The notes beneath the pieces are model-generated. The model saw only the letters and a program-made list of their open reading frames with translations. It was not told the DNA's origin and made no database searches. A stretch of 64,000 nt of DNA from a virus, in the IMG/VR virus record IMGVR_UViG_3300031715_000003, positions 1 to 64,000 of that record. The stretch is one strand, 5' to 3'. Shown in pieces: positions 7,983-33,647 of the stretch (positions are counted from its first letter, which is position 1; every line of letters begins with the position of its first letter). The translations under genes were made by a program, and so were the position numbers.

Positions 7983-8432
7983 ATGAGGGAGGTCTTGAGG
8001 CAGTTGGTGTTCTGGTCCGCAGTCGTGATGTTGGGAATGTCGGGATTCTTTGCCGGGCTTTCAATTTTGTGGGGGCTGGCGCGGGCGTCCGACATCTTCA
8101 TATTCCGGGCCCCGATAGAGGTTTCGCTTAAGGCTGGTTACTTGTGGATCAAGATGGACTACTGCAAGCCAAAGTATACGCGGCCAGCCGACGTAAGGCT
8201 GGAATTTGACGATACGACGCGGGATTTTCAAGCCCTGATCCCTGAAACGTTTGTGTCGGAACTACCGGTGGGATGTCATGATTACACGGACTACATTCCA
8301 ATTCCACCCATTCTCCCCCCTGGCACGTACCGCGTTAGAATGATCCGCTCGTACCGGATTAACCCGTTCAAGACCATAACGGTCGAAAGTGTATCGAATG
8401 CGATCATGGTCTCGGAACCAAAAACGCAATAA
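7983..8432 (+). CDS. membrane-anchored beta-rich protein of unknown function
   Basis: A 149-residue product starts two bases after the preceding stop. One hydrophobic N-terminal segment (about 8-34) acts as signal anchor. The rest is beta-strand rich with two cysteines (CKPKYT and VGCHDYTDY) and a proline-rich IPIPPILPPGTYRV turn. Family not recognised. It is probably co-expressed with the XhlA-like protein upstream. Confidence 0.55.
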   Translation: MREVLRQLVFWSAVVMLGMSGFFAGLSILWGLARASDIFIFRAPIEVSLKAGYLWIKMDYCKPKYTRPADVRLEFDDTTRDFQALIPETFVSELPVGCHDYTDYIPIPPILPPGTYRVRMIRSYRINPFKTITVESVSNAIMVSEPKTQ

Positions 8433-8442
8433 AGGAGCCAAT

Positions 8443-8559
8443 ATGGAAGACGAACCGAAGCAGGAAGAAGATCACAAGCCGGAAGAACCTGAGGATCCGA
8501 AAGAGGAACCAGTTCTCGGTGGCCCCGGCGATGGTCCTCCCGGCGACCGCGGCAATTGA
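8443..8559 (+). CDS. short acidic proline/glutamate-rich peptide
   Basis: A 38-residue frame (MEDEPKQEEDHKPEEPEDP, then a glycine/proline tail) follows an AAAGGAGCC ribosome binding site. Composition is highly acidic and disordered. No family recognised. It is kept because of the strong binding site and its place in the plus-strand operon. Confidence 0.4.
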   Translation: MEDEPKQEEDHKPEEPEDPKEEPVLGGPGDGPPGDRGN

Positions 8560-8585
8560 TATAAATCAAAGAAAAAGCGTGCAGG

Positions 8586-8939
8586 ATGGACGATCAGAAA
8601 CGATGGGAACTCGGAGGTTCTCTCATAGTTGGGATAGGCGCTGCCCTAGCCCGGTTGTTTGGTGCCAGCGCTAAGCGTGGCGCTAGAGAGGATTTGTATG
8701 CTCGGCTTCAGAAAGATGTGGTATCGGTGAGGGCCGACCTGGATGACCTCCAGCGGCAGGGCGATATCGACCACGAAACGATCCGTGATCACGGGCGCCG
8801 GTTGGTGCGCGTTGAAATCAGTGTGGATCGGCTTGAGCAGCTCGAGCCAGAGTTGGAGGGCCTTCACGACTCTATCGGGAGGATTCTGGCGGGCCTGCGG
8901 GACAAGCGCCAGCGTGACCAATCGATCGGCTTAGAGTGA
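8586..8939 (+). CDS. coiled-coil protein with hydrophobic N-terminus
   Basis: The 117-residue product has a glycine/alanine hydrophobic stretch at about 10-28 (GGSLIVGIGAALARLFGAS) and a long charged coiled coil from 40 onward (RADLDDLQRQ...DRLEQLEPELEGLHDSIG). It resembles small phage holin-associated or spanin-like proteins in size and layout only. Its 3' end overlaps the convergent membrane protein gene by 68 bases. Confidence 0.5.
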   Translation: MDDQKRWELGGSLIVGIGAALARLFGASAKRGAREDLYARLQKDVVSVRADLDDLQRQGDIDHETIRDHGRRLVRVEISVDRLEQLEPELEGLHDSIGRILAGLRDKRQRDQSIGLE

Positions 8940-10317: not shown

Positions 10318-10512
10318 TCAGAACGGATAGCACCCGTAAGTGTCCGCAAAATCTTGCGGAGACCAATAGTATCCGTACACATCTGGCTGGAAGAACGTCA
10401 TGTAGACGGCCCATCCCATTGGTGAGCAGATAGGCCAATTCGGGCCGGATTGCGCCAGGGCGGTCAACGCCGCCACTGCGCTCAACACTACAACTGCGAT
10501 TAGCTTTTTCAT
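10318..10512 (-). CDS. small secreted protein
   Basis: A 64-residue protein with a textbook signal peptide (MKKLIAVVVLSAVAALTALA, cleavage before QSGP) and a 44-residue aromatic mature part with two cysteines. AAAGGAGCCT precedes the ATG. Unknown function. It sits in a run of exported proteins. Confidence 0.6.
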   Translation of the reverse strand: MKKLIAVVVLSAVAALTALAQSGPNWPICSPMGWAVYMTFFQPDVYGYYWSPQDFADTYGCYPF

Positions 10513-10588
10513 AGGCTCCTTTTAGAGGGAACCTGCCCGGCTTCCCAGATGCTGGACGCAGACGGCGCAATGTCCAGCGAAAATTGAA

Positions 10589-11356
10589 CTACTCCTCTGC
10601 GTCTGATCCGCCGATAATTTGCACCAAGTCTTCTGATCCGCCGATTACCTTCGGCTTGGGCATCTTGTCCATGGCTTTTCTGGTTAGCCCTCGCATGATC
10701 TCCTTGGTGCCGGAGGACAGCCCTGTACTAAGCTGGGGGCGATTCGCAGGGACGCCGTAAATATTAGACCATTCGGGTCCGTTGCTGACCGTGTTGATCA
10801 CCACGTAACAGAGGGATCCGTCGACCTCAACATAGGCGCTTCCGCCCTGCCCGATGAAGGCGTAATCCCAGATACACGTCCCGTCAGATTGCCACCCGCA
10901 TACCCAAAATGTCACGTTCGGGCTGGCCAGCGTACTGGTCGAAACTCCGGCCCACGGCGGTTGGGGTTCGCTGCCTACTGTGTACCCCAATACAAAGCTG
11001 GCCCCTACTCTTCCGATGTCGGGCGAGCCCTTAAACGTAATGCGCTGGTTCACCTCGTCGCACGCGGATATGGTCAGCGTCCAATTTGGTATCACCACGG
11101 CCGGATATCCTGGAGGCGGCTGCGGGACCGCGAATTCAAAACCCAACAAAACCGTACCTCCGACGGCGACCTCGAAGTTCTCCAGCAGACCTCCGGCTGC
11201 CAGCGGAGAGATAACCGCAGCCGGATTGACGTTGCTGTCGATCCCCGGCTGAAACGTGATCGGGCCTATCACTGGCTGACCGACCAAATTACTGCACTGT
11301 TGCTGCGCGACGGCGCAACAGGCAGATGCCAAAACGAGCATTACGACGTGTTTCAT
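10589..11356 (-). CDS. secreted protein, unknown function
   Basis: A 255-residue product with signal peptide MKHVVMLVLASACCAVA and a beta-rich mature domain containing at least five cysteines (CSNLVG, SACDEV, CGWQSDGTCIWDY, SLCYVV). The C-terminal 50 residues are charged and may be exposed. A GGAGAAACT site lies before the ATG. No family recognised. Confidence 0.6.
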   Translation of the reverse strand: MKHVVMLVLASACCAVAQQQCSNLVGQPVIGPITFQPGIDSNVNPAAVISPLAAGGLLENFEVAVGGTVLLGFEFAVPQPPPGYPAVVIPNWTLTISACDEVNQRITFKGSPDIGRVGASFVLGYTVGSEPQPPWAGVSTSTLASPNVTFWVCGWQSDGTCIWDYAFIGQGGSAYVEVDGSLCYVVINTVSNGPEWSNIYGVPANRPQLSTGLSSGTKEIMRGLTRKAMDKMPKPKVIGGSEDLVQIIGGSDAEE

Positions 11357-11366
11357 AGTTTCTCCT

Positions 11367-11750
11367 TTACGTTTCTCTGGACTTCTTGCCCATCCGATTG
11401 TGGTACTTCACGGTCTTGCGCCGCTTGATTTCGCGTTTCCACTTCTTCTTCTGCTGCCGCTTGATCATTAGCTGGCCGTCAACGTCCCGCGATCCATCCT
11501 TGCGTGACTCTCTTAGAAAAGAGCACAAAGCACTAGAGGCCATCCATAGAGCGCATAGAACGGCTCCAGCAAGCATTGGCACACATACGTTAAAATCAAT
11601 CCACGTGAAGACATTCGTTCTGCTTTCGTCCTGTGTAATTCCAAAGATGGGATACCACCAGACGTGAGCAGTGGTATGAATTGCAAATAGCGTGAATATG
11701 ATAGCCAGTATCGCCATGAACACAGAGGCCGTGCACGCCGCCTTTCTCAC
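11367..11750 (-). CDS. two-helix membrane protein with very basic tail
   Basis: Start taken as the GTG at 11750 because it overlaps the upstream stop as GTGA, the commonest junction here. The 127-residue product has two transmembrane segments (about 8-28 and 52-75) and a strongly basic cytoplasmic tail (KRQQKKKWKREIKRRKTVKYH). The tail could contact nucleic acid or membrane phosphates. Unknown family. Confidence 0.5.
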   Translation of the reverse strand: MRKAACTASVFMAILAIIFTLFAIHTTAHVWWYPIFGITQDESRTNVFTWIDFNVCVPMLAGAVLCALWMASSALCSFLRESRKDGSRDVDGQLMIKRQQKKKWKREIKRRKTVKYHNRMGKKSRET

Positions 11751-12286
11751 CGTTGCGCTCCGATCACACCTTGCCAGCATGAACTGGCCTGCAGGGGATA
11801 GCTTGCGGCCGGGTCCACCAGCCCAGCCAGGATTGCGGTGGGGTCGGGAGCCCGCCCTTGGATCTGGCTTGCCAGCGCCACAAGGCTTCCGGTGAGGACC
11901 ACGCCAGCCGTCTCCCACTTCGATTTGTTACGCTCCGCGATATTGATTACGCCAGAAGTCGCGGCTCCGGTAGCGGCTCCCGACAGTATGGGAGTTCCCC
12001 ATCCGAACCACTTGCGCCAGTCATCTGCCGCAGCGTGCTGCATCGCGGCCTTTACCGCTGGCGGGATCAGCGTCACGTATCCCGCGGAGAATGCCTGCCG
12101 ATACAGATCTCCCCCCGATTGCGTTGCCGGCGTAGTCCCCGCACACACCGTCACCGACAGGAGTTGCAGATGCTTCATTGGACGCCCGGTCGCCGTCTTG
12201 AGAACGTCGGCAGACTGCGGGGAGAACGTTGCTGGCAGAAGCTGCGCCGACAGTGGGAGCGCGGCGAAAATAAGGAACCATTTCAC
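11747..12286 (-). CDS. secreted protein, unknown function
   Basis: The GTG at 12286 (GTGA overlap with the upstream stop) gives a signal peptide MKWFLIFAALPLSAQ. The 179-residue product has alanine/glycine-rich hydrophobic stretches near 95-135 that may be a membrane hairpin (GAATGAATSGVI, GVVLTGSLVALAS). No family recognised. Part of the exported-protein run. Confidence 0.5.
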   Translation of the reverse strand: MKWFLIFAALPLSAQLLPATFSPQSADVLKTATGRPMKHLQLLSVTVCAGTTPATQSGGDLYRQAFSAGYVTLIPPAVKAAMQHAAADDWRKWFGWGTPILSGAATGAATSGVINIAERNKSKWETAGVVLTGSLVALASQIQGRAPDPTAILAGLVDPAASYPLQASSCWQGVIGAQR

Positions 12287-12948
12287 TTGGAAGGCCCTGC
12301 TCCAATTCGATACGGTGGCGGGATCCCGTGATCCACTTTCGTATACGGAATGTCCCCGCATAGTTTCCACCCGATGGTAGTTTTGCACCATTTCTGAGAA
12401 TCTGAGTGAACAACGAAGTTATCGATGAAACGATCATCCACCCACTCAGGCTCCATGTGCGGCTCTCCAAGCTCCAGATGGTAATCCCAGTGGCCCTGAA
12501 TTTCCTCTCCCCACTTTCCGACTAGCCTCACGGTGGATTGCTGTTCCAGCAAGAAGTGCCGCTTGCAGTAGAAGGTTCGAGCGAAGCTCATGTAGCCGTC
12601 GAAATTGGCTTCCCCTCCCACTGATCTCCATTCCGAGTCCTTCTGCTCTGGTGCGACGGTTTCACAATCGCGATAAACCTGAGAGCTTTCTTGAGGCAGA
12701 CCAAAATTTACGATCTCTCCAAACCACATGTCCCCGTACTCCGCGACGTATTTGAAGCCGTGGATATCGATCTTGCGCTCGAATTGCCCGCGTAATTCGA
12801 TCACGCCTTCGCGGCAGTGGAACCATTTCTCGACAGAATTCTCAACTACCCGTCGAGCCACTATCGTACAGTCGTGGTACTCAGCAGAGTATGAACCAGA
12901 GGTTTGCCCGACCAGCGGAAGCGCGAGGAGTGCGATGAGGAGCTTCAC
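12283..12948 (-). CDS. secreted protein, unknown function
   Basis: GTG start at 12948 overlapping the upstream stop. Signal peptide MKLLIALLALPLVGQTSG, then about 200 residues rich in aromatic and charged residues with five cysteines (HDCTIV, HCREG, RDCET, YCKRH, WCKTT...LCGD). Possibly disulfide-bonded after export. Family not recognised. Confidence 0.55.
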   Translation of the reverse strand: MKLLIALLALPLVGQTSGSYSAEYHDCTIVARRVVENSVEKWFHCREGVIELRGQFERKIDIHGFKYVAEYGDMWFGEIVNFGLPQESSQVYRDCETVAPEQKDSEWRSVGGEANFDGYMSFARTFYCKRHFLLEQQSTVRLVGKWGEEIQGHWDYHLELGEPHMEPEWVDDRFIDNFVVHSDSQKWCKTTIGWKLCGDIPYTKVDHGIPPPYRIGAGPSK

Positions 12949-13454
12949 TCTGCTGATTCCTGTGCAGTGGCACGCTTGGTCTTGCCGTTCTTGGGGGAGT
13001 CTGTTTCGGGAAGTTCCATCTGTTCCTCAGCGTTGAACGTGATCTTTAGTTGTGCCTTGGAATCGGATGGCCCCACGGATTTGATCCACTCCCATACGGC
13101 AGGCATCGCTCCATCGTCCACGGTCGTCACGATGAAGGTGAGTTCCCGACGTTTGGTTTTGCCATCCTCCACATGGGCCTTATGTTTGAAGGCGTGGACT
13201 TTGGAGATGGGGATGTCGAAACGGTAGGGCTTCAGATCCTTCCCGTTTGGCTCGCACATCATGCTGATGCCCGCGAGACTCCCATCGAGCGACCCAGATC
13301 CGTCTCCCTCGCGCTCGAACACCCATCCGAAGGCTTCGCAAACGGGTTGCGTCCACGCAGAGGAGAAACTGATTTCCGCAGTTCTTTGGCCTGCGCTGTT
13401 GCAATAGAAGAGGCACTGCTCAATTGCAGCACCCCGAATCAAAATGCTCGACAT
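12945..13454 (-). CDS. unknown protein of about 169 residues
   Basis: An acidic product with a beta-rich centre (RRELTFIVTTVDDG, AQLKITFNAEEQ) and a charged C-terminus containing ETDSPKNGKTKRA. The codons for TDSPKN are the first copy, from the left, of the dispersed GGGGGAG motif (in antisense). Preceded by GGGAGGTTTC. No family recognised. Confidence 0.5.
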   Translation of the reverse strand: MSSILIRGAAIEQCLFYCNSAGQRTAEISFSSAWTQPVCEAFGWVFEREGDGSGSLDGSLAGISMMCEPNGKDLKPYRFDIPISKVHAFKHKAHVEDGKTKRRELTFIVTTVDDGAMPAVWEWIKSVGPSDSKAQLKITFNAEEQMELPETDSPKNGKTKRATAQESAE

Positions 13455-13463
13455 GAAACCTCC

Positions 13464-13574
13464 CTACCTTTTAAGTTTGTCTATTTCTCGCAGAACGAAG
13501 ACTATCCCGGTAATAATCAATATCGCCAGCGCAACAAACATGAGTCCGATATCGTCCGTCGTAGCGCACGTCAT
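13464..13574 (-). CDS. small transmembrane protein
   Basis: A 36-residue frame starting MTCATTDDIG, with one transmembrane helix (LMFVALAILIITGIVFVL) and a basic C-terminus (REIDKLKR). The ATG overlaps the stop of the HNH frame upstream (ATGA). The next gene starts 10 bases later. Function unknown. Confidence 0.5.
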   Translation of the reverse strand: MTCATTDDIGLMFVALAILIITGIVFVLREIDKLKR

Positions 13575-13750
13575 CCCCCATGCTCCTCTCGATGGCACGC
13601 GCCAGCGAATCCTGTGCACAGAACCGCAAGATTGGCGATCCGGTCGTCTCGCCCTTTAGAGCGGTGCTGAATGTGGTGGCCCTCCCCGCATCCCTGGAGG
13701 TCGCGCCCGCACTTTGCGCAGCGTGGGGAATTATATACTACCGTATACAT
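13571..13750 (-). CDS. N-terminally shortened HNH endonuclease
   Basis: The 59-residue frame reads C-A-K-C-G near residue 11, then GEGHHIQHRSKGRDDRIANL, AVLC and CHREEHG. That is the zinc CxxC, the HH of the beta-beta-alpha-metal fold and the final CH..H of phage HNH nucleases. The usual 30-50 residues before the CxxC are missing, and the frame begins inside the 3' end of tnpB. This looks like a gene cut by arrival of the TnpB element and now starting at an ATG supplied by it. A short functional nuclease is possible but less likely. Confidence 0.55.
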   Translation of the reverse strand: MYTVVYNSPRCAKCGRDLQGCGEGHHIQHRSKGRDDRIANLAVLCTGFAGACHREEHGG

Positions 13751-14841
13751 TCTGAAGAACCTTTCAGTCCCGCAAGGCTCTTCCCGAGCCTAAGAACATT
13801 GATCGATGCATTATGATCGCGATCCAAGTTCGTCCCGCATTCGCAAATATGGCGCCGCTCCTTCAGCGTCTTCCGCACATCTGCACCGCAGTTTGAACAG
13901 CGGATCGATGTGCCCCTGGAGTTAACTGGTATGGCCCATCGCCCGGCACTTTCAGCCTTGTACGATATTTGCCAAATCAGTTCTCCCCATGCGGCATCGA
14001 GGATGGATTTGGCAAGTTTGCCGTGCACCATCCTAGCGATGTTCAGTTTTTCAAAAGCGATCAGGTCGTAGTTGGACACCAACCACTTGCTGACATGATG
14101 GATAAAATTGCGTCTGGCGTCGGCCGCACGCTGGTGCGCACGACGTAATGCCTCTTTGGCGCGGACACGGTTGTTTGACCGCTTTTTCTTTAGCGCTAGA
14201 CGCCGATTTGCCGCCGCGATCTTAGCCTCATGCTTGCGCGTCCAGCGCGGATTATCTATCGAGCGTCCATCGGAAAGAGTCACGAAATTGATTAATCCGA
14301 CATCAATACCGACGGCGCTTGACACCACGACCTTTTCTGGTGCGGCCCCGATATCGCAGCACAGGCTGATTTGCCACCGTTCACCGCGGCGCTTAACTGT
14401 GGCCGTGCGCGGTGTGCCGATAATCAACTGGCTCGACTTGAATTTGAACCAGCCCAGATCTGGAATCCTAATTTTGTTGTCAAGTATCCGCACCTTGCCG
14501 AACAGGAATGAATTGTAACGATGTCTCGAACGGAATCGTGGAAACCCCGGATTTTCACCGCGCTTGCAGCGACGGAAGAAATTCTTAAAGGCTCGCTCTA
14601 GCCGACGTAGGGGCTCCCGCTGAATGTCCACTGCAATCCTGGCGAACTGTGAATCTTTGCGTAGTTCCGTAAGTTCGGCCTGTTGGTCGTAAAGTCCGAT
14701 GTGCTTTCGCTCTAGCTTCCATGCTTCCTTGCGTTCCTGGAGTGCTGCATTGTAGGTCTCCGCGCTATCGCGAAGGATGTCCTCGAAAGCAGCAAGTTGA
14801 GCTTGGTTCGGTCGGAGGCGAAGTGTGTACGTCCGGAACAT
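13738..14841 (-). CDS. tnpB: TnpB, IS200/IS605-family RNA-guided nuclease
   Basis: The 367-residue product (ATG at 14841; a longer frame would overlap the upstream gene) has an OrfB N-terminal helix-turn-helix (YTLRLRPNQAQL), and a RuvC domain with Asp in GIDVGLINF, Glu in IAFEKLNIARM and Asp in LDRDHNAS, bracketing a zinc ribbon (CSNCGADV...CECG). All three catalytic acids are present. TnpB uses an RNA from the 3' end of its own element to cut donor-joint DNA. No TnpA is present. The stop at 13738 lies beside a hairpin-prone GC-rich end that could hold the guide RNA scaffold. Confidence 0.9.
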   Translation of the reverse strand: MFRTYTLRLRPNQAQLAAFEDILRDSAETYNAALQERKEAWKLERKHIGLYDQQAELTELRKDSQFARIAVDIQREPLRRLERAFKNFFRRCKRGENPGFPRFRSRHRYNSFLFGKVRILDNKIRIPDLGWFKFKSSQLIIGTPRTATVKRRGERWQISLCCDIGAAPEKVVVSSAVGIDVGLINFVTLSDGRSIDNPRWTRKHEAKIAAANRRLALKKKRSNNRVRAKEALRRAHQRAADARRNFIHHVSKWLVSNYDLIAFEKLNIARMVHGKLAKSILDAAWGELIWQISYKAESAGRWAIPVNSRGTSIRCSNCGADVRKTLKERRHICECGTNLDRDHNASINVLRLGKSLAGLKGSSECIR

Positions 14842-14845
14842 GAAA

Positions 14846-15208
14846 CTAATCTCTACGCTCCTGGGTCGATTGGTAGCGGGCATAATGCTCCTCCGCTAAT
14901 TGCTTCATGTTGACCACGTATCGTTTCTCAAATGCTTTTCGTCCGGCGTCGTATTCGCGATGGTAGGCGCGTTCCAGGGGAACGCACGAGGAATCTGGTC
15001 CTTTGCTTCCCATCCCGTTGTTTTGCGTATGAGCGGGATCAATTATCGCTCGCCTCCAAAGCCCACTCCCGGAAACTATCCAAGTATCCCCCTTTATCCC
15101 GGATACGACGCATGGTTGCTCGCAGCACCATTGTCGATAACCGACGTCTCTCATCGGCCCGCGACGAGGTTTCGCGCGCTTCTGCGGAATCCGGCTGCGG
15201 ACCTTCAT
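14846..15208 (-). CDS. DUF968-type HNH nuclease
   Basis: A 120-residue protein with a basic N-terminus, WCCEQPCVVSG, an H in IIDPAHTQNNGMGSKGPDS, CVPLERAYHREYD and a helical tail. This order of Cys, His, GMGSKGPD and HREYD is typical of the phage DUF968/YbcO-like HNH-fold nucleases of replication and recombination modules. Its ATG overlaps the preceding stop (ATGA). Its stop is only 4 bases before the tnpB start. Confidence 0.65.
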   Translation of the reverse strand: MKVRSRIPQKRAKPRRGPMRDVGYRQWCCEQPCVVSGIKGDTWIVSGSGLWRRAIIDPAHTQNNGMGSKGPDSSCVPLERAYHREYDAGRKAFEKRYVVNMKQLAEEHYARYQSTQERRD

Positions 15209-15432
15209 GCGAAAATTCCTTTATCTCTCTTCTGGCGCGCTCGGGATATCGCTTCATGCATGTCGCGTAGTGCTTGGGGGAGTCTGCTTTTGGTGATCGA
15301 CATCATCACGAACGCTTCGTCGGTTTCGCCGTCGTGCGTTATGAGCGCAAAGAGGCCGCCCGGATCAAGTCGAACCTCAATCTCGCAGCCGGTTACCTGG
15401 AAGATTCTGCGTACCAAGCGCTCTGGCGTCAT
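15205..15432 (-). CDS. small unknown protein
   Basis: A 75-residue protein (MTPERLVRRIFQVTG...) with an alpha-beta pattern and a basic C-terminus. Start set by the ATGA overlap with the upstream stop at 15429. It contains an antisense copy of the dispersed motif at about 15276-15291. No family recognised. Confidence 0.5.
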   Translation of the reverse strand: MTPERLVRRIFQVTGCEIEVRLDPGGLFALITHDGETDEAFVMMSITKSRLPQALRDMHEAISRARQKRDKGIFA

Positions 15433-15671
15433 TCTGCACTCCCATCTAGTGGCACGGCAAAGAAGTACGCCACGGTACCATGCATCTGAACGCACACAGC
15501 GTGAGAAAGTTTCCGCGCTGTACTGATCGCCGATGCTGTCTCGTGGTCTAAGTTGCAATGACCGATCTGGACTCCTGGAAACTCTTCGGCATAGGCAGAG
15601 CGTCGGCGACTCTCATCCGCTTCTAACTTGAGGAGGCGCTTCCTCATGGCCTGCTGCTCGCGCCGGCTCAC
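15429..15671 (-). CDS. small unknown protein with charged N-terminal helix
   Basis: 80 residues from a GTG overlapping the upstream TGA. GGGGGAGAACGCAA immediately before the GTG is both the end of the previous gene and the only plausible ribosome binding site. The N-terminal 25 residues are a basic helix (SRREQQAMRKRLLKLEADES). The remainder is an alpha/beta segment. Unknown function. Confidence 0.5.
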   Translation of the reverse strand: MSRREQQAMRKRLLKLEADESRRRSAYAEEFPGVQIGHCNLDHETASAISTARKLSHAVCVQMHGTVAYFFAVPLDGSAE

Positions 15672-15898
15672 TTGCGTTCTCCCCCCTGCTTCGGCTCCCA
15701 CACTGGGCAATTCTCGTAGTCCGGCCAGATGTACCTTCGACTGTACATTGAGGATTCCAGGCTGATAGCAACCACCGGAAGCTTTGGAATCGGCCAGGAG
15801 CACTCTCCATGCTGGCCCTTAATCGGACGCGGCTTGGAATGCTTGGTCATGCTGAACTTTGCCCATCGGCAGGTTGTGCATTTCCCGTGGCCCGTCAC
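15668..15898 (-). CDS. small cysteine-containing protein
   Basis: 76 residues from GTG (GTGA overlap). CTTCRWAKFS near the start, GECSWP and ENCPVWE further on could form a single zinc site. The C-terminus is GGERK, encoded by the dispersed motif. Family not recognised. Confidence 0.5.
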   Translation of the reverse strand: MTGHGKCTTCRWAKFSMTKHSKPRPIKGQHGECSWPIPKLPVVAISLESSMYSRRYIWPDYENCPVWEPKQGGERK

Positions 15899-16077
15899 TT
15901 GCGTTCCCCTTCACGAAAGAGCCACTGCATGATGGCCGCGAGCGTTCTCCCATCCATCATTTCGCCATTCTCGATTCGGCACAGCGTAGAGGCGGCGATG
16001 CCCATATCCTTCGCCACGTCCCGCACCGTCAGTTCCGACCACCCGCGCCACTTCTTGAGAACCTCTCCGAGTTTCAC
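15895..16077 (-). CDS. XRE-family helix-turn-helix regulator (Cro/CI-like)
   Basis: The 60-residue protein is one XRE domain: LGEVLKKWRGWSELTVRDVAKDMGIAASTLCRIENGEMMDGRTLAAIMQWLF. The recognition helix is IAASTLCRIENG. It lacks a dimerisation or cleavage domain, so it resembles Cro more than CI. A 16-bp perfect inverted repeat and a TTGACA box lie just upstream of its start, consistent with autoregulation. It leads a short leftward group of small genes that runs into the nuclease and TnpB genes. Confidence 0.8.
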   Translation of the reverse strand: MKLGEVLKKWRGWSELTVRDVAKDMGIAASTLCRIENGEMMDGRTLAAIMQWLFREGERK

Positions 16078-16089
16078 TAGGACCTCAGC

Positions 16090-16116
16090 GTATCATAGCT
16101 GATACAGCGATGTCAA
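16090..16116 (-). promoter_or_regulatory. promoter with palindromic operator for the XRE gene
   Basis: On the minus strand TTGACA (16116-16111) is followed by the perfect inverted repeat GTATCAGCTATGATAC (16105-16090), which includes TATGAT and TGATAC as candidate -10 boxes. Spacing to TATGAT is short (13) and to TGATAC 15, so the exact -10 is uncertain. The palindrome overlapping the promoter and the adjacent XRE gene make it the likely operator of that regulator. Confidence 0.6.
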
Positions 16117-16125
16117 CCGCGATTT

Positions 16126-16401
16126 TCAGTCGCACGCTTCTATCTCGAATAGCCTGGGAGGATGGTTTCGAAACTCTGGCTTGCTTCGAAAACTCCGATG
16201 GCCTCCCATAGCCAGCATCCGGCGGTGCTGGCGCATGTAATCCTCCAAGGTGACTTGGCGCAGCACGCGCACTGGAATCCCGTCTATGTGCAGAACATCT
16301 CCTACTTGCGGTAGCCGGTTCCAGCACTCTAGGATGATCGTGCCGCCAAGAAGACGCGCGTCTTCAATCCATCCCTTGTCGTCGCAGGTTTCTGATCTCA
16401 T
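16126..16401 (-). CDS. unknown small protein downstream of DnaB
   Basis: 91 residues, ATGA overlap with the dnaB stop. The middle (WNRLPQVGDVLHIDGIPVRVLRQV) looks like a small beta barrel. The C-terminus is basic. Translational coupling suggests a replication-related role, but no family was recognised. Confidence 0.5.
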   Translation of the reverse strand: MRSETCDDKGWIEDARLLGGTIILECWNRLPQVGDVLHIDGIPVRVLRQVTLEDYMRQHRRMLAMGGHRSFRSKPEFRNHPPRLFEIEACD

Positions 16402-17765
16402 TCTCCAATGTCCTCCGCGCGATTCTCAAACCTTGTGAATTGTCCCAGGAAGCGCAAGGGGACAACGCCCGTGGGTCCGTTCCGCTGTTTCGCCACGATC
16501 AGGTCTGCCAGCCCCTTCAGATCCTCCCGGTCGCGTTTATACAGTTCCTCGCGGAAGATGAACAGCACGGTGTCGGCGTCGGCTTCTATTTTGCCAGAAT
16601 CTAGCAAATCGCTCAGCATTGGCCGTTTGTCGCCCGGACGCTTTTCGTTCGCCCGGCTCAACTGCGAGAGGAGGATGATGGGGATGCCCAACTCCATCGC
16701 GAGCCACTTTGTCTGGGTCGTTATGCGGCCAACTTCAATGTTACGATTTTCCGATTTCTCTTTAGACGCCAGTAGTTGAAGGTAATCGATCCCCACCAGC
16801 CCGATTTGCTTCCGCATCTTGCGGGCTACCCGTTGAATCTCCGGCACCCCGATGCCGCTCTTGTCGCATATCCACAGCGGAGCATTCGCGAGCCTATCGA
16901 GAGCTTCCTGTAGCCGCCTGCGGTCCTCTTGGTTCAGGTAGCCGCCGCGGAACTTGTGTTGATCAACGCGCGCCGCCGCGCACACCATCCTGGCCAACAG
17001 GCTGGCACCCGACATCTCAAGGGAGAACACCAGCGCTCCAGTGCCGGCCAGCACCACGTTGGCCACAATGTTCATCAAAAGACTAGACTTTCCTTGTGAT
17101 GGCCTGGCGGCCAAAATTATCAACTCTTCGGGCCGGAAGCCTCCTCCCATCATTTCGTCCAGCTTGCGGTACTTCGTCGCCAGCGTTTCCTGCCGCTGGC
17201 TTGGATCCAGGAACGAAGAGATGCCGCCCGGGTACTGCTCTACGATCTCCATGGGGCTGCGGGCGAGGATTTCGTGCGCCGGCCTGATCTCCTGTAGTTC
17301 TGTTTCGGCGGCTCTGGCGATCTCGGACGCTTCCGTGTTCCCTTCGAGGGCTGCGAGGAAGGCTTTCTTTGCCGAGAGCGCTATAGCCCGCAGATTCGCT
17401 TTCTCCAGCACAATGCGGACGTAGCCCGGCAGGTTGGTGATGTCGGGGAGTTCGGCCGTGATGTCGGCCAGGTAGAGCAAGCCCCCTATGGATTCGAGAT
17501 GGCCGCGCCGCACCAATTCTTCCACCACCATGATGCGGTCCGGGGATTCCCCTCGCTCATGCAGCGCCTGCATCGAGGCAAAGATGCGGCGATGCGGTTC
17601 ATTGCTGAAAGCGTGCTCCCCCAGGGACTCGATTTCGTCCCAACGTGAGCCGTTGAGGAGAACGGTCCCCAGGACTAGCCGTTCTGTTTCAGGACTGGCG
17701 GGGAGCCCGGTTTGGAGCGCGACGGCTCCAGGGTCGAATTGTGGAACAGCGCGGTTGCGTGGCAG
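16398..17765 (-). CDS. dnaB: replicative DNA helicase DnaB
   Basis: The first ATG (17573) would give 391 residues and cut off a conserved part. The frame is open upstream through ETERLVLGTVLLNGSRWDEI and EHAFSNEPHRRIFASM, the standard DnaB N-terminal domain, back to a CTG at 17765 that follows TAGGAGG. That gives 455 residues, the normal family length. No ATG, GTG or TTG is available in that 64-codon stretch, so a CTG start is the best reading. Walker A is ARPSQGKSS (about 221), Walker B LVGIDYLQLL (about 323). Two motif copies lie in the N-terminal part. It would load as a hexamer at the phage origin. Confidence 0.88.
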   Translation of the reverse strand: MPRNRAVPQFDPGAVALQTGLPASPETERLVLGTVLLNGSRWDEIESLGEHAFSNEPHRRIFASMQALHERGESPDRIMVVEELVRRGHLESIGGLLYLADITAELPDITNLPGYVRIVLEKANLRAIALSAKKAFLAALEGNTEASEIARAAETELQEIRPAHEILARSPMEIVEQYPGGISSFLDPSQRQETLATKYRKLDEMMGGGFRPEELIILAARPSQGKSSLLMNIVANVVLAGTGALVFSLEMSGASLLARMVCAAARVDQHKFRGGYLNQEDRRRLQEALDRLANAPLWICDKSGIGVPEIQRVARKMRKQIGLVGIDYLQLLASKEKSENRNIEVGRITTQTKWLAMELGIPIILLSQLSRANEKRPGDKRPMLSDLLDSGKIEADADTVLFIFREELYKRDREDLKGLADLIVAKQRNGPTGVVPLRFLGQFTRFENRAEDIGE

Positions 17766-17772
17766 GTGCCTC

Positions 17773-19293
17773 CTATGCGGGGAACTCGCGGACGCGGAGA
17801 TTGCTCGGAAAATCTTCTATGTGGCCGCCCTTGCTGTCACTCATGATCCACGGATCTTCTCCGTCAAAACAGTTGGAGCCGCCCTGTTTCATGAAAAAGC
17901 TGGTACCTGCGGTGCGGCATTGATCGCGCACGGCCTCGGCCCATTCCCAATGGAAAGGGCGAGCGCCGGGCCCGCTCTCCCCTCCTACGATTACTTGCGA
18001 AATTCCGCGCAGGTCCAATTCGCCGATGTCCTCCAATAGCGGCTCAATCGAAAGGAATCGGATGGCGGCTGGGGTCTCCCGAAGTACATCAATGCGATCC
18101 TTGCGCGCTTGATCCTCCACGGAGCACCCCGCCCAGCAATTTACGAGCGGCCATTCTATCGGCGCGTCCATATTGCCTTGACGTCCCCGTGCGATATTCC
18201 TAACCTGCGTCGCAGAGACTCCAAAATGATGGGCCAGGGCTTCGCCAGTCTCTCCTCGGGAATGCCTGCGCCTGATCTCGGATACGTCACTCTCGGTTAG
18301 TTTCGAATAGCGGCGATGGTTTCCGTGGCGTTTACTGTCCTCCCAGTTATCGCCTTGAGTACCCCAGCGCAAATTGGCGATGTGGTTATTGGTAGCGTTG
18401 CCGTCCCTATGGCAACCCTGCTCCTCGGCGACGGCAGGCCGATCAAATGCAGTTAGAACCAATCGATGAACCAGTTCTCTATACTGAACGCCATCCTTGT
18501 AAAGCATAACCCTCTGATGGCCCTGATCGCCCTCGTCGGGCGACATTCGTACCAACTTACCAGCAAATCGTGGTTCGTGCCCGACGCGCCGGTGATAGCA
18601 AGCGTTTTGCTTACATTGCTTGCTGCAGTATGATTTAGTTGCGATTCCATCGACTGGCTTACCGCAATATAAACATTCGGAACTGCCATGAGAACTAAGC
18701 ACAAATCCAAGGTTCGAAATGAAATATCCAGGATAGGATTCGATTGGCCTAATCTCTTCCGTTACATGCGTCATTTCCTGAGCGACAGATACGACATCCA
18801 TCTGCTTGGCGATTCTAAAAGGCGTGCGGACCTCTGAGCAATATGTCAGCATCCTACCGGGCCGCTTTGTTAGCACTTGAAACGTGTGCTGAGGACATAG
18901 CGCCATAACCGCGAAAATCCGGTCTATCGCTTCATCTGGCAGCGCTTCGTGGAATAGATCCGACATCGAATTGACGAAGATGCGGCAGGGCTTGCACCAG
19001 TGAAGCGGTTCCATGAGCTTGGATTCGATCAGTTCTACTTTGCCTGTCCACTGAGGATGACCGTTGGCGATGCGGACAAAGCCGTTGAACTTTCCAGCCT
19101 TCTGGATCTTCCCAAATAAATCACCATCTCCTGGGGGTTCGTAATCTGGGGCTTGTGAAAAGCGCGCTGCGATGCGTTCTGCATAACAGTGAACGCAGCC
19201 GGGAGAAACTCGGCTACAACCACGGGTCGGGTTCCACGTTTTACCTTCCGACCCATCTTCCCCGCGCGTCCATTCGATGCTAGTCTTTCCCAT
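17773..19293 (-). CDS. DUF5131 (Gp37/Gp68) protein with in-frame HNH insertion
   Basis: Residues 1-170 and 373-506 match the DUF5131 family: IEWT...TWNPTRGC, the three-cysteine cluster C26/C33/C36 ending in HCYAE, LTKRPGRML, then SVEDQARKD, IRFLSIEPLLEDIG and GGESGPGARP. The family resembles radical-SAM enzymes and is common in phages; the reaction is not known to me. Between them sits about 195 residues of a homing endonuclease: NUMOD4-like IESYPGYFISNLG (about 185), a CLYCGK...YCSKQC zinc site, HNH_3 motif CHRDGNATNNHIANLRW (294-310) and a helix-turn-helix (about 331-371). No stop interrupts it, and intein end motifs are absent. GGGGAGAACGA before the ATG is the ribosome site. Confidence 0.8.
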   Translation of the reverse strand: MGKTSIEWTRGEDGSEGKTWNPTRGCSRVSPGCVHCYAERIAARFSQAPDYEPPGDGDLFGKIQKAGKFNGFVRIANGHPQWTGKVELIESKLMEPLHWCKPCRIFVNSMSDLFHEALPDEAIDRIFAVMALCPQHTFQVLTKRPGRMLTYCSEVRTPFRIAKQMDVVSVAQEMTHVTEEIRPIESYPGYFISNLGFVLSSHGSSECLYCGKPVDGIATKSYCSKQCKQNACYHRRVGHEPRFAGKLVRMSPDEGDQGHQRVMLYKDGVQYRELVHRLVLTAFDRPAVAEEQGCHRDGNATNNHIANLRWGTQGDNWEDSKRHGNHRRYSKLTESDVSEIRRRHSRGETGEALAHHFGVSATQVRNIARGRQGNMDAPIEWPLVNCWAGCSVEDQARKDRIDVLRETPAAIRFLSIEPLLEDIGELDLRGISQVIVGGESGPGARPFHWEWAEAVRDQCRTAGTSFFMKQGGSNCFDGEDPWIMSDSKGGHIEDFPSNLRVREFPA

Positions 19294-32791: not shown

Positions 32792-33132
32792 CGCGCGCGC
32801 TCCCGTGGCTTCCAGTGCACGTCATAGAACCAGAGCGACATCAGATAGGCGCAAGCAGCTTCCTTATGCTCATGTTGCGGCTGAAACGATCGCGCAATGG
32901 CTTGAACGTGGTTGAACGCCTTCACTGTGTCGATCCCTACTTTAGGCGTGAACCTGACATCCTCTACTCCAAAGAAAAACATATCACTAAAGAAGCCATT
33001 CCAGAGCGTACGGCCGTGCTTGAACTCCTCTGGGATGGCTTCGAAGGCAGGCATGAGCGAAAACACATCCGCTGGCCCGAAGGCCATATCCAGCCCGGTT
33101 ACTTCGGTGGGAGCAGTGAAATCTGTCGTCAC
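32788..33132 (-). CDS. small unknown protein
   Basis: 114 residues from a GTG (GTGA overlap). Aromatic-rich (LWNGFFSDMFFFGVEDVRF), helical C-terminus. Family not recognised. Confidence 0.45.
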   Translation of the reverse strand: MTTDFTAPTEVTGLDMAFGPADVFSLMPAFEAIPEEFKHGRTLWNGFFSDMFFFGVEDVRFTPKVGIDTVKAFNHVQAIARSFQPQHEHKEAACAYLMSLWFYDVHWKPRERAR

Positions 33133-33647
33133 TTCGCAACCTCCTGCGGGAGTTCGCTTTCAGCCGATTCCGTTCTCCCCGTCAGCCAGAATTTATTGCC
33201 GTCTACAATTGCTTGGCAGATGATGCGGAGTCGGTCGCGAGCGGATGCCGGGCGTTCTTCCTCGAATGGCCACGGATATCTCATAGGGCTCCATCCTTCG
33301 AAGATCGCCTCGACGCGCGTTCGGCTTGCTTTGTCTAGTGGTAGACGCGGAAGATAGATGTTGTCCTCAATGTAGAGGTATCCATTGGTGCGGAAATTGA
33401 GGTCAATTGCGTCCTCCCGAATGGCTTGGGCAACGAGAAATGCCCCGAGCGCGCAGACGTGGCACTCCACGCCCGACAATGCGAGCTGCTGAAGGTCGAT
33501 AGGGCCATCGCCCTCCCATTGCTCAACCCGCACGTAACTTATTTCCGTGAGTTCGAGTTTTACCGGCCCCTTGTAGTCGTGGTCCAGGTATCGCAGCACG
33601 TCGGCTGCAAGCATTTCGATGGTCAGTGGTTGTTGTTCTTCGGACAT
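33129..33647 (-). CDS. unknown protein of 172 residues
   Basis: Start is the ATG at 33647, 12 bases after the AATAGGAGG of repeat cassette A. The product is acidic alpha/beta (VLRYLDHDYKGPVKLELTEI, GVECHVCALGAFLVAQAIRE) and ends ESELPQEVAK, encoded by the motif. No family recognised. Confidence 0.5.
   Translation of the reverse strand: MSEEQQPLTIEMLAADVLRYLDHDYKGPVKLELTEISYVRVEQWEGDGPIDLQQLALSGVECHVCALGAFLVAQAIREDAIDLNFRTNGYLYIEDNIYLPRLPLDKASRTRVEAIFEGWSPMRYPWPFEEERPASARDRLRIICQAIVDGNKFWLTGRTESAESELPQEVAK

What the first reader, a model, noticed from the sequence alone, without database searches (positions are those of the whole stretch)
13571..14841. Intact TnpB without TnpA, next to a truncated HNH gene
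All three RuvC acids and the zinc ribbon are present, but there is no TnpA and almost no space upstream for a left end. The downstream HNH gene lacks its N-terminus. TnpB may be kept for its RNA-guided cutting, for example against rival phages, or it may be a recent insertion into the HNH gene.
Basis: partly seen in the sequence, partly recalled or inferred. Interest (0 to 1): 0.56.

Follow-up and report, generated by a model that had tools for sequence, protein, structure and literature searches.

The report
Phage TnpB aimed at HNH gene
This phage carries an apparently intact RNA-guided DNA cutter (TnpB) that has lost the left end needed for normal jumping but keeps its guide-RNA end, whose guide reads a neighbouring nuclease gene, so it probably survives by cutting relatives that lack it; the parts are of a known kind.

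Summary
Confirmed: window 13738-14841 (-) encodes a 367-aa TnpB with D180/E264/D342, a four-cysteine zinc ribbon, no TnpA or serine recombinase in its 94-kb phage record, and no left end (LE). Added here: a 3' omegaRNA (13726-13814, -) shares covarying stems with 22 related 3' ends and stops at a conserved right-end motif; the next 20 nt (13725-13706), the presumed guide, are HNH-gene codons. The HNH domain is complete; only what preceded it is missing. TnpB therefore sits in, or at the edge of, an HNH gene whose 5' part is gone along with the LE. The family (23 distinct TnpBs, mostly phage contigs) keeps the catalytic residues in 23/23; 10/23 show no LE, with at least four changes on the tree. 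A parallel exists: TnpB in phage L067 broke a GIY-YIG nuclease gene, while TnpB-free relative L148 has that gene whole with a perfect 24-nt guide match after GGG. Best reading: a transposition-disabled TnpB kept by RNA-guided homing into, or exclusion of, TnpB-free relatives. No empty HNH site, no guide target elsewhere and no expression data were found, so activity is inferred. New member of a known kind.

The parts
13738..14841 (-). tnpB, 367 aa, RuvC D180/E264/D342, zinc ribbon C315/C318/C333/C335
14842..14883 (-). possible in-frame N-terminal extension of TnpB (ATG 14883, GGAGGAG upstream, overlaps the DUF968 3' end); may be the leftover start of the gene that was entered (inference)
13726..13814 (-). 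omegaRNA scaffold: stem 1 GGCTC/GAGCC (about 13791-13775), stem 2, stem 3 GUAUAC/GUAUAU, right end ...GTATATAATTCCC
   Evidence: model R1, 69.1 bits; this copy was in the model's training set; covariation; relatives outside the model found at about 1e-12 to 1e-14
13706..13725 (-). predicted guide, first 20 nt after the right end, CACGCTGCGCAAAGTGCGGG, codons of the HNH gene
   Evidence: position by homology with the family right end
13571..13750 (-). HNH gene remnant: 59-aa frame with a complete HNH domain; its ATG lies in the tnpB 3' end
   Evidence: PF01844 E 4e-7; phrog_740 E 3e-6
14846..15208 (-). DUF968 (HNH-type) phage gene directly upstream of tnpB
   Evidence: PF06147 E 2e-6; relative L014 at 56%

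Best explanation
A TnpB-only IS200/IS605-like element entered an HNH nuclease gene of this phage (or the gene's edge); with the event or afterwards the DNA to its left was deleted, taking the left end and the HNH N-terminus. TnpB is now read from phage signals (ATG 14841, or the stronger site at 14883). Its mRNA 3' end folds into an omegaRNA ending at 13726; the adjoining HNH codons are the guide. TnpB-omegaRNA would cut the same HNH sequence in phages with an unoccupied allele, so that the TnpB allele is copied across by recombination (homing) or the rival genome is lost. Without a left end it cannot be moved by TnpA. Shown: protein, catalytic residues, RNA fold by covariation, right end, guide position, absence of a recognisable left end. 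Inferred: cleavage, TAM, homing, order of events.
For: Covariation: 34 doubly changed cells against 12.1 expected, 0 of 500 shuffles. Family omegaRNA found in relatives outside the model. Left end, defined by matching each element's own right end or the family palindrome, found in 13 of 23 distinct members (L071 weakly), not in the window. D-E-D and four Cys in 25 of 25 TnpBs aligned, 23 family members and 2 outgroup rows. Codon-position differences 0.26/0.21/0.58 against sister L047. Parallel case L067/L148: GIY-YIG gene broken by the element, about 180 bp of it gone on the left, guide matches the TnpB-free relative over 24 nt after CAGGG. Deletion derivative L205 of L050 lost the left end and most of tnpB but kept omegaRNA and guide.
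Against: No empty-site relative of the HNH gene. No target for the guide outside the locus at 0-1 mismatch. Sister L047 is also without a left end but sits elsewhere, so either the end was lost twice or such copies move. The single-sequence fold of the window omegaRNA is not unusually stable (z -1.2). L205 and L202 show that tnpB in this family does decay, so the window copy could be newly orphaned rather than maintained. TAM unproven.
Confidence: 0.6

Rival explanations
1. Dead-end relic: a TnpB element that lost its left end by deletion and simply has not decayed yet; no function for the phage now.
For: Deleted and decayed relatives exist (L205, L202); no guide target found.
Against: 10 of 23 members lack a left end, at least four changes on the tree, with no broken catalytic residue among them; third-position excess. 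But members were found by TnpB similarity, which favours intact genes.
Confidence: 0.25
2. Domesticated phage regulator or anti-rival weapon: TnpB with a guide kept for gene control or for exclusion of other phages, independent of spreading itself.
For: Translation likely coupled to the phage operon; left end lost.
Against: Catalytic residues intact, unlike nuclease-dead TldR (recalled); the guide is the flank itself, as in an ordinary insertion; no matching rival sequence found.
Confidence: 0.1
3. Not an insertion into the HNH gene: TnpB landed between DUF968 and a short HNH gene whose natural start was just before the first CxxC.
For: HNH domain complete; some phage HNH proteins have only about 10 residues before CxxC (vir524 HNH).
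Against: The only ATG of the remnant lies inside the family-conserved right end, so the original start was displaced; mycobacteriophage HNH relatives have about 50 residues before CxxC.
Confidence: 0.2

Closest known systems
IS200/IS605 TnpB with reRNA/omegaRNA (ISDra2 TnpB; Karvelis 2021, PMC8612924, passages read)
   Same: Protein family, RuvC triad, zinc ribbon, omegaRNA overlapping the tnpB 3' end, guide from the flank
   Different: No TnpA in the record, no left end, sits in a phage gene; the right-end motif GTATATAA(G/T)TCCC is that of this subfamily
TnpB gene drive of IS in plasmids (Mears 2025, PMC11870625, abstract read)
   Same: Proposed logic: cut the unoccupied allele, favour the occupied one
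   Different: Here phage-borne, without TnpA and without a left end; not tested experimentally
Phage-encoded TnpB loci (Thermus Lalka phages, PMC11437467, passages read; landfill viruses, PMC12607003, passages read)
   Same: TnpB in phage genomes
   Different: Those are next to CRISPR or CRISPR-like arrays; none found here
Phage homing endonucleases (HNH, GIY-YIG; general knowledge)
   Same: Would spread by cutting empty alleles
   Different: RNA-guided; in two family cases it sits in or beside such a nuclease gene

Membership tests
IS200/IS605 TnpB RNA-guided nuclease | TnpB domains and RuvC D-E-D | tested here: met
IS200/IS605 TnpB RNA-guided nuclease | zinc ribbon CxxC..CxC | tested here: met
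IS200/IS605 TnpB RNA-guided nuclease | structured omegaRNA across the tnpB 3' end | tested here: met
   (structure by covariation; transcription not tested)
IS200/IS605 TnpB RNA-guided nuclease | guide-dependent cleavage next to a TAM | not testable with these tools
   GGG suggested only by L148 and by the GGG at 9 of the 12 left ends printed
complete, mobile IS200/IS605 element | left end | tested here: not met
   no family left end and no match to its own right end within 3 kb
complete, mobile IS200/IS605 element | right end | tested here: met
complete, mobile IS200/IS605 element | TnpA (Y1) in cis | tested here: not met
   none in the 94-kb record, which may be incomplete
IS607 element | serine recombinase TnpA | tested here: not met
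   none in the record
TldR (nuclease-dead TnpB regulator) | loss of RuvC catalytic residues | tested here: not met
   definition recalled
Type V CRISPR-Cas | adjacent repeat-spacer array | tested here: not met
   no array in window 10500-18500

The most novel reading that the evidence does not exclude
In this phage-associated family TnpB has become a homing-only, RNA-guided endonuclease gene: left ends are shed repeatedly while catalytic residues and the guide-RNA end are kept, because copying into unoccupied alleles needs the cut and flanking homology but no transposase. One-sided repair after the cut would explain losses of target DNA or element to the left of tnpB (L067, L205, and by inference the window), and dispensable rival nuclease genes (HNH, GIY-YIG) would be favoured landing sites.
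Probability: 0.2. Interest if true: 0.68.

Novelty: new member of a known kind. Interest (0 to 1): 0.42.

Why it matters
If active, it is a natural phage case of RNA-guided homing without transposition, and the family supplies a ready test: L067 (TnpB present) and L148 (same gene whole, with a perfect guide match) can be compared in a laboratory strain. It would also show what remains under selection when a TnpB element can no longer jump.

Tried and rejected
Rejected or empty: HNH remnant in GenBank phages at E 0.01, no match; in IMG/VR, 58 pattern stretches, 0 confirmed; in 297 Acidobacteriota genomes, 1 weak match inside a 1877-aa frame. Guide 20-mer: 0 in IMG/VR; in 297 Acidobacteriota genomes only 2-mismatch places (26 listed, in 24 genomes; 9 for the reversed-pattern control by my count of the table), not taken as targets. 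Gene 12945-13454: no IMG/VR relatives. Rfam: no hit in the window. Y1 transposases in the L071 phage (G025) as a mobiliser in trans: their surroundings do not resemble the TnpB ends. Second omegaRNA in the window's record: none. L188 in the last scan is a chance motif match, with no TnpB and no model hit. dS between the window and its nearest relatives was saturated, so no dN/dS is given for it. Papers: searches listed no work on TnpB homing between phages in the held library; most subscription papers and preprints are not held.

Weak points of my own steps: the HNH frame was wrong (0 families) and was redone. The left-end label in the tree rests on motif searches; L071 is weak (27 against a shuffle maximum of 28), L053 and L063 rest on the palindrome and not on the self-match, and L016's match may be some other repeat; L074 was put among 'noLE' without a left-end search. 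Rows dropped: L068/L069 (near copies of L067), L058-L062 (copies of L057) and relatives under about 50% identity were left out of the 23; L016 was left out of the covariation alignment. Model R1 scores L065, L071 and L073 poorly (34, 24 and 29 bits) and misses L016 and L017.

Full report
Observation. The finding holds. On the minus strand of window 13738-14841 lies a 367-aa TnpB with the OrfB_IS605 and TNB domains, an NCBIfam guided_TnpB match of 256 bits and nearly full-length similarity to the solved ISDra2 TnpB. The RuvC residues D180, E264 and D342 and the cysteines C315, C318, C333 and C335 are in place. The record is an IMG/VR virus contig of 94,224 bp; it holds no Y1 transposase and no serine recombinase, and 4 bases lie between the upstream DUF968 stop and the TnpB ATG.

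The HNH gene. Read from 13750 to 13571 the frame gives 59 aa with a complete HNH domain (PF01844; phrog_740). Its only ATG is inside the tnpB 3' end. So the domain is whole and what preceded it is missing. I found no intact ortholog (only weak matches at E up to 10), so the original N-terminus is unknown. A strong ribosome site and ATG at 14883 upstream of TnpB, in frame with TnpB, could be the old HNH start; joining it to the remnant moved the scores of HNH profiles only slightly, up for some and down for others, which I treat as no evidence.

The family. A profile of five TnpBs found 79 distinct viral loci and 32 loci in the bacterial and archaeal species collection. I studied 23 distinct members, at roughly 50-68% identity to the window protein: the window, 19 phage contigs and 3 Acidobacteriota MAG loci (L015, L016, L017). 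Counts are of what these scans return, not of nature.

The guide RNA. The 3' ends of the family share two hairpins inside the tnpB coding end, then a third, then GTATATAA(G/T)TCCC in about half of the members and looser endings in the rest. On 23 aligned 3' ends (22 TnpB genes; L070 has two copies, L016 left out) the two hairpins have 89% standard pairs, 7 pairs with changes on both sides and 34 doubly changed cells, against 12.1 in shuffles, 0 of 500 reaching it; slid structures do far worse. A covariance model from 12 sequences finds the window copy at 13725-13814 and no second copy in the record. The window was in the training set, but relatives outside it (L047, L048, L051, L055, L064, L066, L015) score 58-70 bits; L065, L071 and L073 score only 24-34 and L016 and L017 are missed. 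Against this, the window's own single-sequence fold is only z -1.2. The 20 nt after the right end, 13725-13706, are the presumed guide and read the HNH codons around the first CxxC.

The ends. In 9 of the 24 elements scanned (23 distinct plus L068), a stretch upstream of tnpB matches the element's own right end, inverted, better than any of 30 shuffles, for example 32 perfect bases in L048. A family palindrome (GGGAnTTATATAn..TAACTCCC) adds L052, L053, L057 and L063. L071 is weak. In all, 13 of 23 distinct members have a left end and 10 have none, the window among these (24 against a shuffle maximum of 26, nothing within 3 kb). On the tree the label changes at least four times on well supported branches, and the window's sister is L047 (100/97), also without a left end but at another place. 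All 25 TnpBs in that alignment keep D, E, D and four Cys. Codon positions differ 0.26/0.21/0.58 between the window and L047; L065/L071 give dN 0.09 and dS 1.9. This fits selection on the protein, but intact genes are also what a TnpB search finds.

A parallel with an empty relative. In L067 the element follows a GIY-YIG nuclease gene. A TnpB-free relative, L148, 89% identical over 767 bp on the left and 92% over 78 bp on the right, has the gene whole. L067 lacks about 180 bp of it directly left of the element; the guide of L067 is found in L148 over 24 nt without mismatch, after CAGGG. Since GGG also opens 9 of the 12 left ends printed, GGG is my candidate TAM; Nety et al. report that a small subset of TnpB TAMs is G-rich (PMC10278001, section read). 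That L148 shows the ancestral state of L067 is inference.

Left-side loss. L205 is 99.7% and 100% identical to L050 on the two sides of a 1.27-kb deletion that removes the left end, a small ORF and about 310 codons of tnpB, sparing omegaRNA and guide. L202 holds a decayed tnpB with a good omegaRNA. So left-side deletions occur in this family, and they are compatible both with relic decay and with the view that only the cut and the right side matter.

Mechanism and verdict. TnpB makes its guide from its own mRNA 3' end (Nety 2023, abstract read) and cuts the unoccupied allele, which favours the occupied one (Karvelis 2021, passages read; plasmid gene drive, Mears 2025, abstract read). Applied here: insertion in the HNH gene, loss of the left side, and continued RNA-guided action on phages with an intact HNH allele. 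Shown here are protein, RNA, ends and the L067/L148 pair. Cleavage, homing and benefit to the phage are inferred. No target was found for the window guide. The window element is a new member of a known kind; the repeated loss of the left end in phages is the part worth a test.

Noticed in passing
window 17773-19293 (-): DUF5131 protein apparently split by an in-frame insert with an HNH_3 match and an HTH-like tail: looks like a homing-nuclease insert inside a phage gene.
   Followed up: partly
L070 3105-3291: Two omegaRNA scaffolds in tandem behind one tnpB, about 10 nt apart, with different following sequence.
   Followed up: partly
L050, L053, L056, L070, between left end and tnpB: Small ORFs of about 47-70 codons between the left end and tnpB: zinc-finger-like (L053, below cut-off), ribbon-helix-helix/NikA-like (L070, above cut-off), no Pfam match for L056.
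   Followed up: partly
L205 and L202: Phage contigs with omegaRNA kept but tnpB mostly deleted (L205, near-identical sibling of L050, same guide) or decayed (L202).
   Followed up: yes
L017 1532-3304 (-) and 1350-2156 (-): Cas9- or IscB-like frames with RuvC-like and, in an overlapping frame, HNH-like motifs beside tnpB in an Acidobacteriota MAG; apparently frameshifted (naming by eye).
   Followed up: no
window 12987-13006 and 15270-15289: 20-nt direct repeat, 90% identical, 2283 bp apart, bracketing the TnpB region; may be chance.
   Followed up: no
G025 8410-8763 and 32953-33306: Two Y1 transposase genes, each followed by a TnpB-like frame (by eye), in the phage of L071, with surroundings unlike the ends of the family.
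   Followed up: partly
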